A stretch of 64,000 nucleotides of DNA, taken from positions 1-64,000 of the forward strand of contig CAVQYV010000009.1 in the NCBI GenBank assembly GCA_963718295.1. Direction: 5' to 3'. The notes under the pieces are model-generated. The model made no database searches, was not told where the DNA came from, and was given only the letters and a program-made list of their open reading frames with translations. Both the position numbers and the translations under genes were made by a program. Each line of letters opens with the position of its first letter. Position 1 is the first letter of the stretch. Origin of the DNA: CAVQYV01 sp963718295 [NCBI: uncultured Methylomirabilota bacterium] (lineage in GTDB: Bacteria > Methylomirabilota > Methylomirabilia > CAVQYV01). Of this stretch, positions 1,605-40,328 are shown piece after piece.

Positions 1605-1633
1605 TTGACAAGCTCAAACGGGTTGAGTATATT
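1605..1633 (+). promoter_or_regulatory. sigma70-type promoter of the manganese-riboswitch leader
   Basis: TTGACA at 1605-1610 and TATATT at 1628-1633 are separated by 17 bases. The expected start of transcription, about 1640, falls exactly where the riboswitch P1 stem begins at 1641-1642, which makes this an unusually well supported promoter. Confidence 0.75.
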
Positions 1634-1640
1634 GGCCCGC

Positions 1641-1757
1641 GGTAAAGGGGAGTAGCAAACGGCCGCTTCCTCGGTCGGGCCGATCTTCGTCAACACGGTG
1701 GCAGTTTCACCCGGAGGCGGCTCCAATTGTAGTCTGTCGGACTCGCGAGACCTTTAC
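1641..1757 (+). promoter_or_regulatory. yybP-ykoY manganese riboswitch aptamer
   Basis: The hallmark conserved strands of the yybP-ykoY (Mn2+) riboswitch are present: AAAGGGGAGTAGC at 1644-1656 and CGTCAACACGG near 1689-1697, then GGAGGCGGCTCC and GCGAGACCTTTAC at 1745-1757. The P1 stem is perfect: GTAAAGG (1642-1648) pairs with CCTTTAC (1751-1757). It stands upstream of a TerC/YjbE gene, the classic partner of this RNA. By family knowledge Mn2+ binding stabilises P1 and switches expression on. Confidence 0.9.
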
Positions 1758-1796
1758 TCACAGCATGGATTATCATGCCGCGGGTAAAGGTTTTTT
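1751..1796 (+). terminator. riboswitch-controlled intrinsic terminator
   Basis: CCTTTAC (1751-1757) can pair with GTAAAGG (1784-1790), with an inner stem GCATG/CATGC, followed by six T at 1791-1796. The 5' arm is the same segment that forms the 3' side of riboswitch P1, so aptamer folding and termination exclude each other. This is a textbook transcriptional ON switch: Mn2+ bound means P1 forms and the terminator does not. About 200 bases of leader follow before the TerC start. Confidence 0.85.
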
Positions 1797-2002
1797 GTTT
1801 GCCTGCGGCGGAAGACAGCACGGAGGCAAACAGTGCACCATTTCGTTCCATTACCTGCACGATCTGTTCCTCTTCCAATGACGCTGAGGTCGTCATTCCC
1901 TCACGTCTCCTCCTTGCTGGTAACACCGGATATCAGGCCCACTAGATCTTATTCCCATTTTCGGTACATTGTTGCATTCCCGAGGTCAACAAGGAGGACC
2001 TA

Positions 2003-2737
2003 ATGATTGATATGGGTTGGTTAGGCCAGATTTGGTTTAGCTGGGAATTCTTATACGCCGTGATGAGCATCGTCTTCATCGACCTGGTGCTGGCTGGTGA
2101 CAATGCGGTGGTCATCGCCATGGCGGTCAAGAATCTTGAGGGAAAAAAGCGGAAGCTTGGGATTATCCTGGGCGCCGGGGGCGCCGTATTCATCCGGGTG
2201 ATCTGCACTTTTCTGGTGGCTCAGCTGCTGAAGATGCAATTCGTCAAACTCGCCGGCGGCGCCGTGATCATTTGGATAGCAGTCAAGCTACTTACCGAAG
2301 GCACAAGGAATGAGTGCCACGGAAAGGAATGCAGCAGCGTTTGGCAGGCGTTGTGGGTCATCCTGGTGGCGGACTTGAGCATGGGCATCGACAACATGCT
2401 CGCCGTCGGCGCCGCCAGCCATGGCAATCTGTTCCTGCTGCTTTTCGGCCTCGCCCTCTCGATCCCCTTTGTGGTGTTCATGAGCAACCTGCTTTCGCGC
2501 TGGATGGAGCGCTACCCGATCATCCTGTGGATCGGTGCAGCCATTCTGGGGCGTGTGGGCGGGGAAATGATGATCAGCGACCCTTGGGTCCATTCGATGG
2601 TGCACCCGGCGAAGTGGGTGGAGTATGCGGTGCAGCTATTCTTCATCGCCTTCGTCCTCCTCTCTGCCAAGATCCTGCAGCGCCCTCGAAAAGCGGGGAT
2701 GGCTGTGACAGCTCCTGCCGAGGCCTCGGATTCGTAA
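2003..2737 (+). CDS. TerC/YjbE-family membrane protein, predicted Mn2+ exporter
   Basis: A 244-residue inner-membrane protein of the riboswitch-linked YjbE branch of the TerC family, which exports or meters manganese. Seven or so hydrophobic segments are visible. The two acidic family motifs are intact: DLVLAGDNAVVIAMA near residue 28 and ADLSMGIDNMLAVGAAS near residue 123. The start has a good site, AAGGAGG, 6 bases upstream. It lies downstream of the Mn riboswitch and its terminator, so expression should rise with Mn2+. The C-terminal tail is short and cytoplasmic-looking. A second predicted Mn exporter follows 149 bases later, probably on the same transcript. Confidence 0.88.
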   Translation: MIDMGWLGQIWFSWEFLYAVMSIVFIDLVLAGDNAVVIAMAVKNLEGKKRKLGIILGAGGAVFIRVICTFLVAQLLKMQFVKLAGGAVIIWIAVKLLTEGTRNECHGKECSSVWQALWVILVADLSMGIDNMLAVGAASHGNLFLLLFGLALSIPFVVFMSNLLSRWMERYPIILWIGAAILGRVGGEMMISDPWVHSMVHPAKWVEYAVQLFFIAFVLLSAKILQRPRKAGMAVTAPAEASDS

Positions 2738-2886: not shown

Positions 2887-3636
2887 ATGGAGGCATTCTT
2901 TGCATCGCTGGTGTTCGTTGTATTGGCGGAGATGGGGGACAAAACGCAGCTTCTCGCGATGGCATTTGCCTGTCGATACCGTTGGCAAACGGTCATGTGG
3001 GGGGTATTTGTTGCCACAGCTGCCAATCACTTGTTGGCCGCCGCCCTCGGCAACTACTTAAGTTCCATTATTCCTCTTGTTTGGATCAAGGCAGCCGCGG
3101 CGGGTTCATTCATTCTGTTTGGATTGTGGACGATACGAGGAGATGTACTTGCAGGAGAGGATAAACGGTTTTCCTTCAGCCCATTTTGGACAGTCACGGT
3201 CGCTTTCTTCATGGCGGAAATGGGCGACAAGACCCAGCTTGCGACGATTGCTCTCGCTGTGGAGTATGATTCCCTTTTTTCGGTCTGGTCCGGTACCACA
3301 TTAGGTATGCTCGTGTCCAACGGCATCGGTATCGCTTTTTCCGTGATCATGGGCAAGCGGATACCCGAACGGGCGATCAAATGGGTGGCCTCTCTCGCAT
3401 TTATCGGTTTCGGCGTTTGGGGGTTGTACGATTCAATGCCTGCACAGGTCTGGAGCCCGATTGTAGTGGCAACCGGCACAGTGTGCCTTTCGGCGGCAGT
3501 CTATATAATGGCTCGATTCAGTCGGGCGAGAAGGCGCCTTTCCGAGGCCCCGTGTTTTAGACCCCCCAATGCCTCCGCGCCTGAACCGCGAATCTCCGTT
3601 TCTGAATCCCGGGTTGCGGGTACAGATAGCGCCTGA
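2887..3636 (+). CDS. TMEM165/GDT1-family (UPF0016) cation exporter
   Basis: A 249-residue membrane protein with the duplicated E-x-G-D-(K/R)-(T/S) signature of the GDT1/UPF0016 family: AEMGDKTQLLAMA near residue 15 and AEMGDKTQLATIA near residue 112. Each repeat has about three membrane spans. Bacterial members such as MneA export Mn2+; yeast and human members move Ca2+/Mn2+. The C-terminal 40 residues after the last span (RFSRARRRL onward) are polar and probably disordered. It follows the TerC gene with no clear terminator between them, so both exporters probably answer to the same Mn riboswitch. No second riboswitch was seen in the 149-base gap. Confidence 0.88.
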   Translation: MEAFFASLVFVVLAEMGDKTQLLAMAFACRYRWQTVMWGVFVATAANHLLAAALGNYLSSIIPLVWIKAAAAGSFILFGLWTIRGDVLAGEDKRFSFSPFWTVTVAFFMAEMGDKTQLATIALAVEYDSLFSVWSGTTLGMLVSNGIGIAFSVIMGKRIPERAIKWVASLAFIGFGVWGLYDSMPAQVWSPIVVATGTVCLSAAVYIMARFSRARRRLSEAPCFRPPNASAPEPRISVSESRVAGTDSA

Positions 3637-40192: not shown

Positions 40193-40216
40193 CTTTCGGT
40201 GGTATCAGGTCCCAAA

Positions 40217-40306
40217 GCCGCTTCCCTTCGCTGGTATTACCCAGATCAGGTGCTAAGGGTCGGTGGCGATCCGCCACCTTCTCAGCCATGGTGCGCCCCT
40301 AGCGGC
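40217..40306 (-). promoter_or_regulatory. TPP (THI-box) riboswitch
   Basis: On the minus strand the aptamer shows the conserved thi-box parts: CTAGGGGCG, GGCTGAGAA, ACCCTT, ACCTGATCTGG and TAATACCAGCGAAGGGAAG. P1 is GCCGCT (complement of 40301-40306) with AGCGGC (complement of 40217-40222). The AGCGGCTTT segment can instead pair with AAAGCCGC (complement of 40189-40196) as an antiterminator. By family knowledge TPP binding turns expression off. Confidence 0.95.
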
Positions 40307-40328
40307 ATGCTTTTCTCTTCTGATTGTG

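What the first reader, a model, noticed from the sequence alone, without database searches (positions are those of the whole stretch)
1605..2003. Complete manganese riboswitch with visible ON-switch logic before two Mn exporters
Promoter, aptamer P1 and terminator are all readable: the segment CCTTTAC (1751-1757) is the 3' side of P1 and also the 5' arm of the terminator ending in six U. The next two genes are both predicted Mn exporters of unrelated families (TerC/YjbE and GDT1), so one switch may control two parallel exporters. The 200-base leader after the terminator is unexplained.
Basis: partly seen in the sequence, partly recalled or inferred. Interest (0 to 1): 0.65.

Follow-up and report, generated by a model that had tools for sequence, protein, structure and literature searches.

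The report
Manganese riboswitch before metal transporter genes
The stretch is a genuine manganese-sensing RNA switch of a well-known class that should turn on a TerC-type metal transporter gene (and probably a second transporter gene behind it) when manganese is high; it is a new member of a known kind, but the standard RNA-family search misses it and most of the relatives tried.

Summary
Promoter (1605-1633), aptamer (1642-1757), terminator (1749-1796) and shared CCTTTAC (1751-1757) are where stated. That test is insensitive: it does not list the E. coli alx riboswitch and scores E. coli mntP below cut-off. A covariance model from nine leaders of this clade finds E. coli alx; 11 of 30 related terC loci carry the element (eight of the 11 are in the model); 54 aligned members covary strongly. 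It is a yybP-ykoY Mn2+ riboswitch acting as a transcriptional ON switch, by homology; Mn2+ response was not tested. GDT1 has no riboswitch of its own here, three homologues do, so read-through control is likely but unproven. The unexplained leader contains the end of an IS21-like insertion element (1949-1982, probably to 1991, beside the Shine-Dalgarno). A further feature: the terminator's 3' arm can also pair with 1798-1809; this recurs in terC leaders and may lock the ON state. New member of a known kind, modest interest.

The parts
1605..1633 (+). sigma-70 type promoter TTGACA-17-TATATT
   Evidence: 11/12 consensus; same placement in 38 of 48 related leaders vs 1.5% of shuffles
1642..1757 (+). 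Mn2+ riboswitch aptamer (yybP-ykoY class, P2-bearing four-way-junction form)
   Evidence: model R1 match 1640-1758, 102 bits (window is in the model); covariation
1642..1648 (+). P1.1 5' strand GTAAAGG
   Evidence: pairs with 1751-1757; sequence, alignment
1651..1651 (+). conserved L1 adenosine, taken as the A-minor A10 of the X. oryzae aptamer
   Evidence: 54 of 54 aligned members (21 of them were fetched with a pattern that fixes this base); equivalence to A10 inferred from the passage
1660..1677 (+). P2 hairpin (1660-1664 with 1673-1677)
   Evidence: covarying helix 3
1679..1721 (+). P3.1 (1679-1682 with 1718-1721), L3 CGUCA 1688-1692, P3.2 hairpin (1697-1701 with 1707-1711), CGG 1712-1714
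   Evidence: helices 4 and 5
1692..1692 (+). near-invariant L3 adenosine, expected Mn2+ ligand (A41 in L. lactis, A48 in X. oryzae)
   Evidence: 53 of 54 members (not fixed by the search pattern); role by homology with passages
1722..1741 (+). P4 hairpin (1722-1724 with 1739-1741)
   Evidence: helix 6
1751..1757 (+). switch segment CCTTTAC: P1.1 3' strand and terminator 5' arm
   Evidence: same overlap in 45 of 49 leaders by script
1749..1796 (+). intrinsic terminator: 1749-1767 with 1774-1790, six U 1791-1796
   Evidence: predicted -22.1 kcal/mol; consensus fold of 11 leaders
1777..1809 (+). post-terminator hairpin: terminator 3' arm 1777-1788 with 1798-1809, 12 pairs, U-tract in the loop
1949..1991 (-). 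end of an IS21-like insertion element; 1949-1982 by sequence match, 1983-1991 inferred tip beside the Shine-Dalgarno
   Evidence: 34-bp matches to ends beside a transposase ORF
1991..1997 (+). Shine-Dalgarno AAGGAGG of terC
2003..2737 (+). terC, YjbE subfamily (244 aa)
   Evidence: PF03741 8.4e-47, TIGR03717 2.2e-58
2887..3636 (+). GDT1/UPF0016 gene (249 aa), probably read through from terC
   Evidence: PF01169 3.4e-43

Best explanation
A transcriptional ON riboswitch of the yybP-ykoY (Mn2+) class. Transcription starts close to the 5' strand of P1.1. When Mn2+ is high it bridges loops L1 and L3 (A1692 being the expected ligand), docks the two legs and stabilises P1.1, which holds CCUUUAC (1751-1757); the terminator cannot form and polymerase reads into terC and probably GDT1. 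When Mn2+ is low, GUAAAGG at 1784-1790 captures CCUUUAC, the terminator forms and transcription ends at the U-tract. Shown here: anatomy, conservation, covariation, mutual exclusivity on paper. Inferred from homology: start site, Mn2+ binding, direction and size of the response, and co-transcription of GDT1.
For: Same element 174-210 nt before terC in 11 of 30 related loci; eight of these 11 went into model R1, while L013, L016 and L024 were found by it independently. R1, built only from this clade, finds the E. coli alx leader (L047:2873-2981, 20.8 bits, E 1e-4; E 0.003 in the larger search) as its only match at E<=10 in 9 kb. Covariation, 54 sequences: 89.8% of cells paired, score 0.466 against 0.157 in shuffles and at most 0.087 in slid registers, 0 of 500 shuffles reach it (alignment fitted to the model, so it leans towards it, and the 52 sources were chosen because they had matched before). 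RNAalifold consensus of 11 leaders also gives P2, P3, P3.2, P4 and the terminator. L3 adenosine in 53 of 54. Downstream genes of related copies are Mn-type: TerC of three types, GDT1, P-type ATPase (several named by eye). Terminator overlap with P1.1 in 45 of 49 leaders. Mechanism described for L. lactis and X. oryzae (passages).
Against: RF00080 gives no match at the window even at E<=10, none over gathering in 30 loci, and 1 of 39 further loci at E<=0.1 (these E-values count all 4227 families). R1 does not find E. coli mntP. The window's P3.1 has an A.G and a C.A mismatch, and by energy alone the aptamer prefers another inner pairing (-42.0 kcal/mol against -23.0 for the drawn structure, tertiary contacts not counted). 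V. parahaemolyticus RNA-seq showed no coverage drop at predicted yybP-ykoY elements (passages), so the mechanism may vary between species. No Mn2+ data for this organism.
Confidence: 0.92

Rival explanations
1. The switch regulates terC only; GDT1 is transcribed from its own unrecognised promoter and is not under Mn2+ control here.
For: 149-base gap; TerC followed by GDT1 was not seen in the 30 related terC loci, where the only two GDT1 genes found (L008, L016) have their own riboswitches.
Against: No promoter-like or terminator-like site listed in the gap (simple consensus scans). GDT1 homologues (58-61% identical) in L008, L016, L062 carry their own Mn riboswitch, so GDT1 belongs to this regulon in relatives; L087 shows riboswitch-htpX-GDT1 in one direction.
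Confidence: 0.3
2. A decayed riboswitch: insertion of an element into the leader has uncoupled it and the switch is no longer functional.
For: IS21-like end just before the Shine-Dalgarno; weaker P3.1 than in several relatives.
Against: Promoter, P1.1, L1, L3 and terminator are all intact; the remnant lies after the terminator; predicted Shine-Dalgarno accessibility is 0.53, within the 0.15-0.76 of ten relatives, and 143 of 200 shuffled leaders are at least as closed.
Confidence: 0.07
3. A related aptamer that senses another divalent ion or pH rather than Mn2+.
For: The ligand was not tested here; TerC and UPF0016 relatives are also linked to Ca (PMC10550928, passage).
Against: The Mn2+-sensing adenosine is conserved, and the associated genes are the usual Mn set.
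Confidence: 0.04

Closest known systems
yybP-ykoY (Mn2+) riboswitch upstream of L. lactis yoaB
   Same: P1.1 switch helix shares its 3' segment with an intrinsic terminator; ON with Mn2+ (passages of PMC11087558; start of the abstract of PMC9190785 in a search listing)
   Different: different host and downstream gene (YjbE-type TerC); a post-terminator hairpin here, whose presence in L. lactis I did not check
E. coli alx (PRE) Mn2+ riboswitch
   Same: found by the clade's own model at E 1e-4; alx is annotated as a Mn2+ exporter and is a TerC-family gene (recalled)
   Different: much shorter P2 in the alignment; expression platform differs (recalled: mainly translational)
Riboswitch-controlled GDT1/UPF0016 genes
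   Same: a review states that 328 of 333 screened strains with a UPF0016 gene have it under yybP-ykoY (PMC7380456, passage)
   Different: in the window GDT1 is the second gene and no riboswitch of its own was found
Vibrio parahaemolyticus mneA and terC
   Same: a GDT1-type and a TerC gene both predicted under yybP-ykoY control (PMC13274385, passages)
   Different: there two separate genes, VP0023 and VPA0856; here one element before both

Membership tests
yybP-ykoY Mn2+ riboswitch (RF00080) | P1.1 plus L1 GGGGAGUAG and 3' L1/P1.1 AGACCUUU (motifs recalled; also seen in E. coli alx/mntP) | tested here: met
   1642-1656 and 1748-1757; near-invariant in 54 members, 21 of which were fetched with a pattern fixing these motifs
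yybP-ykoY Mn2+ riboswitch (RF00080) | L3 CGUCA with invariant Mn2+-binding adenosine | tested here: met
   1688-1692; A1692 in 53 of 54
yybP-ykoY Mn2+ riboswitch (RF00080) | two legs joined at a junction (P1, P2, P3, P4) | tested here: met
   covarying helices; docking itself not tested
yybP-ykoY Mn2+ riboswitch (RF00080) | homology to an experimentally known member | tested here: met
   R1 finds E. coli alx leader, E 1e-4; does not find mntP
yybP-ykoY Mn2+ riboswitch (RF00080) | match to the Rfam model (a classification rule) | tested here: inconclusive
   no match, but positive controls fail too: alx not listed at E<=1, mntP 41.6 < 45 bits
yybP-ykoY Mn2+ riboswitch (RF00080) | placed before Mn homeostasis genes | tested here: met
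   TIGR03717 R_switched_YjbE and GDT1
yybP-ykoY Mn2+ riboswitch (RF00080) | Mn2+ binding and Mn2+-dependent expression | not testable with these tools
   needs in-line probing or transcription assays
IS21-like element end (leader 1949-1991) | sequence shared with ends of elements that encode an rve/HTH transposase | tested here: met
   34 bp at 91% just upstream of a transposase ORF in L112; pattern at 5 places in 3 of 198 genomes, reversed-pattern control 0; the same ORF start follows in L113 and L114
IS21-like element end (leader 1949-1991) | complete element with both ends and its transposase genes | tested here: not met
   only one end is recognised and no ORF in 1800-2003 is long enough for a transposase, so it is at most a remnant; the name IS21 is recalled, not from a call

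The most novel reading that the evidence does not exclude
The leader is a three-way switch: the terminator's 3' arm has a second, downstream partner (1798-1809). When Mn2+ keeps P1.1 closed, this post-terminator hairpin traps the arm behind the polymerase, makes the ON decision irreversible and keeps the read-through mRNA from folding back into the terminator. It would be a conserved ON-state lock in Mn riboswitches of terC-type leaders of this bacterial group.
Probability: 0.3. Interest if true: 0.5.

Novelty: new member of a known kind. Interest (0 to 1): 0.3.

Why it matters
The riboswitch itself is ordinary, but the case shows that the Rfam model in use is nearly blind to a whole clade: it lists 1 of 39 loci at E<=0.1 and none over its cut-off, although all 39 carry an element that a clade model recognises. 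Surveys that rely on it will under-count Mn regulation in these bacteria, including candidate regulon members such as htpX and Tim44-like genes; I found no paper naming those two with this riboswitch as a target, but the main survey (Dambach 2015) is not held. The post-terminator hairpin gives a simple test of whether riboswitches lock their decision after the polymerase has passed.

Tried and rejected
Rfam search as the deciding test: negative, then shown to be insensitive by E. coli controls. Subthreshold Rfam matches (nrdJ 15.3 bits, snoRNA, lncRNA) rejected as chance; the nrdJ match happens to cover the post-terminator hairpin.

Shine-Dalgarno sequestration by CCUCCUU in the leader (1909-1915): the two can pair (-17.1 kcal/mol as isolated strands), but the mean unpaired probability of the Shine-Dalgarno is 0.53, and 143 of 200 shuffled leaders are at least as closed; rejected.

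Minus-strand ORF 1690-1926 as a real gene: its first 34 residues have only chance-level matches (10 of 155 genomes at E<=1; weak matches); rejected as a gene, origin of 1810-1948 left open. No plasmid match for 1800-1995; plasmid matches to 1635-2740 cover only 5% of it, inside terC (5 of 7 records listed); none in viral contigs for GDT1.

A riboswitch before GDT1 in the window: R1 at E<=1 finds none there.

Post-terminator hairpin as a second terminator: no U-run follows it in the window; rejected. The hairpin is not universal: cognate pairing beats swapped partners for YjbE leaders (14, p 0.0038), Alx-type leaders (8, p 0.0022) and Tim44 leaders (5, p 0.015), but not for HtpX (5, p 0.16), P-type ATPase (7, p 0.25) or four others (p 0.16); L001 and L010 are weak one by one (z -0.19, -0.94). 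Swaps ignore relatedness.

Script limits: L066, L068, L074, L077 gave no leader (pattern too strict) and L095 was dropped as a duplicate, so searches use 49 leaders or fewer (47, 48, 48, 49). L016 and L096 had no U-tract by script (one search took L016 with a looser pattern); L058 and L072 were misread. In one search the script picked start codons too early for L003 and L004. Searches scored only 23 and 9 candidates per genome, so their tallies are lower bounds.

Full report
What is there. At 1605-1633 lies a promoter-like site with 11 of 12 consensus bases (the count of such sites in the region is not above chance). Eight bases later begins an RNA element of about 115 nt, followed by a terminator with six U (1749-1796). 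The next genes are terC of the YjbE subfamily (2003-2737; TIGR03717, whose NCBI name is R_switched_YjbE) and a GDT1/UPF0016 gene (2887-3636).

The Rfam test. RF00080 gave no match in the window at the gathering score or at E<=10 in 511 or 146 bases. I therefore ran positive controls: of the two known E. coli Mn riboswitches, the mntP leader scores 41.6 bits, below the 45-bit cut-off, and the alx leader is not listed at E<=1 (the E-value counts all 4227 families). In a single-family search of 12 relatives' genomes no match is over the cut-off; of the 11 terC leaders there, one (L008, 20.1 bits) is touched at E<=10. In 14 control genomes the family rings in 9 and is over its cut-off in 2. In the model's printed structure the 5' strand of P1.1 is unpaired. 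So its silence is weak evidence.

Relatives. A scan of genome contigs with TerC gave 30 loci, mostly MAGs titled Syntrophales, Syntrophobacterales, Desulfobacterales or Deltaproteobacteria; 11 of 30 have the same element 174-210 nt before terC. The other 19 include loci with little or no upstream DNA (L021, L029) and second terC copies of assemblies that have one switched copy (for example L012 beside L001). A covariance model from nine leaders, the window and eight of these loci (R1), finds the 11, the window and two GDT1 leaders and nothing else at E<=1 in 305,841 bases; L013, L016, L024 and the GDT1 leaders were not in the model. In 9 kb of E. coli it finds the alx leader alone, E 1e-4. This places the element in the yybP-ykoY class without Rfam. 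Genome searches found matches in 6 of 155 and 18 of 389 genomes, both lower bounds, and the pattern AARGGGGAGTAGC-N70-100-AGACCTTTAY in 20 of 395 genomes, with no match of the reversed pattern.

Structure. On ten leaders, hand-drawn P1.1, P1.2, P2, P3.1, P3.2 and P4 have 90.0% of cells paired and 14 pairs with changes on both sides; no shuffle of 500 reaches this and slid registers give 32-47% paired. On 54 matches aligned to R1 the covariation score is 0.466 against 0.157 in shuffles and at most 0.087 slid; this alignment is fitted to the structure. RNAalifold on 11 leaders gives P2, P3, P3.2, P4 and the terminator by itself. Bases near-invariant in 54 members include GGGGAGUAG (1647-1655) and AGACCUUU (1748-1755), which were fixed by the search pattern for 21 of them, and C1688, C1691, A1692 and GG 1713-1714, which were not. 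A1692 should be the adenosine whose N7 binds Mn2+ (A41 in L. lactis, A48 in X. oryzae; passages of PMC6754395). Against the drawing: energy alone prefers another inner pairing for the window's aptamer (-42.0 against -23.0 kcal/mol), and its P3.1 has two mismatches.

Mechanism. In L. lactis, Mn2+ stabilises P1.1 and thereby prevents the terminator (passages of PMC11087558). The window has the same overlap, as do 45 of 49 leaders by script; of the other four, two have no U-tract by the script and two were misread. I infer the same ON logic here. The promoter is placed alike in 38 of 48 leaders against 1.5% in shuffles. In V. parahaemolyticus, RNA-seq showed no coverage drop at predicted elements (passages of PMC13274385).

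The two genes. No riboswitch, promoter-like or terminator-like site was found between terC and GDT1. GDT1 homologues 58-61% identical to the window's in L008, L016 and L062 have their own Mn riboswitch, and in L087 a GDT1 gene follows a riboswitch-controlled htpX-like gene. GDT1 is thus a natural member of this regulon, here probably served by read-through. TerC and UPF0016 are called related in one paper (PMC10550928, passage), so 'unrelated families' is too strong; the same paper describes TerC proteins as metalating exported enzymes, so 'exporter' is one of two readings. A review states that 328 of 333 screened strains with UPF0016 have it under this riboswitch (PMC7380456, passage), and V. 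parahaemolyticus has mneA and terC each under one (PMC13274385, passages). A single element serving TerC and GDT1 in tandem I did not see described in the passages read; some searches were the only searches made for it.

The long leader. From U-tract to terC start is 26-36 nt in nine relatives (73 in L024) and 206 in the window. Bases 1949-1982 match at 91% the region just upstream of an rve/HTH transposase ORF in L112, and a pattern made from it occurs at 5 places in 3 of 198 genomes, two of them near contig starts as expected of repeats; the reversed pattern has none. The same ORF start follows in L113 and L114. The element tips there read TGTCAA; the window's TGTTGAC, next to the Shine-Dalgarno, is taken as its tip by inference. 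The family name IS21 is from recall; what lies between 1810 and 1948 is unassigned.

The post-terminator hairpin. In the window the terminator's 3' arm 1777-1788 can also pair with 1798-1809, 12 pairs, with the U-tract in the loop. The other ten terC leaders folded there also pair part of this arm downstream, weakly in L001 (-6.6 kcal/mol). Against shuffles of the downstream stretch the window is strong (z -4.7, 0 of 200); the other ten terC leaders scored range from z -0.2 to -3.7. Partner swaps give p 0.0038 for 14 YjbE leaders and no effect for 7 ATPase leaders; relatedness is not corrected for. Because the downstream arm is made after the termination point, it cannot prevent termination; it could lock the read-through state. 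This is the most novel reading and is untested.

Verdict. A real Mn2+ riboswitch, new member of a known class, with ordinary ON logic; modest added interest from the Rfam blind spot, the element remnant and the possible lock.

Noticed in passing
L082, L083, L086, L087, L088 (about 1497-1619): The same Mn riboswitch precedes genes that look like the membrane protease htpX (Peptidase_M48 confirmed for L087 only; the others by similar N-termini). HtpX co-purified with TerC proteins in B. subtilis (PMC10550928, passage).
   Followed up: partly
L058, L064, L065, L067, L071: Mn riboswitch before Tim44-like genes (Pfam confirmed for L058 only; others by similar N-termini); in L058 a Bax-inhibitor-like ORF follows (by eye).
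   Followed up: partly
L078, L090-L094, L096, L097: Shorter Mn riboswitches without the long P2, before genes that look like P-type cation ATPases (by eye); the seven of them tested (not L096) show no post-terminator pairing.
   Followed up: no
L084, L085: One riboswitch before a TerC gene; in L084 a second TerC-like ORF follows and a divergent GDT1 gene lies next door (gene order listed for L084 only).
   Followed up: no
L098: A riboswitch-like element (60.9 bits) about 400 nt before a VTT-domain (DedA-like) gene; whether it controls that gene is open.
   Followed up: no
L008:2858-4732: Divergent GDT1 and terC, each with its own Mn riboswitch, on a contig titled Candidatus Riflebacteria although its terC is 71% identical to the window's, like those of Syntrophobacterales-titled contigs: misbinned contig or transfer.
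   Followed up: no
window 40206-40310, minus strand: TPP riboswitch, 71.9 bits.
   Followed up: no
Rfam RF00080: The 177-position model in this copy lists 1 of 39 loci of this kind at E<=0.1 and none over cut-off, and does not list E. coli alx.
   Followed up: yes
window 1810-1948: Leader segment without any convincing match; its reverse strand has a Shine-Dalgarno-like AAGGAGG (1909-1915) and an ATG, perhaps a gene-start remnant of the inserted element.
   Followed up: partly
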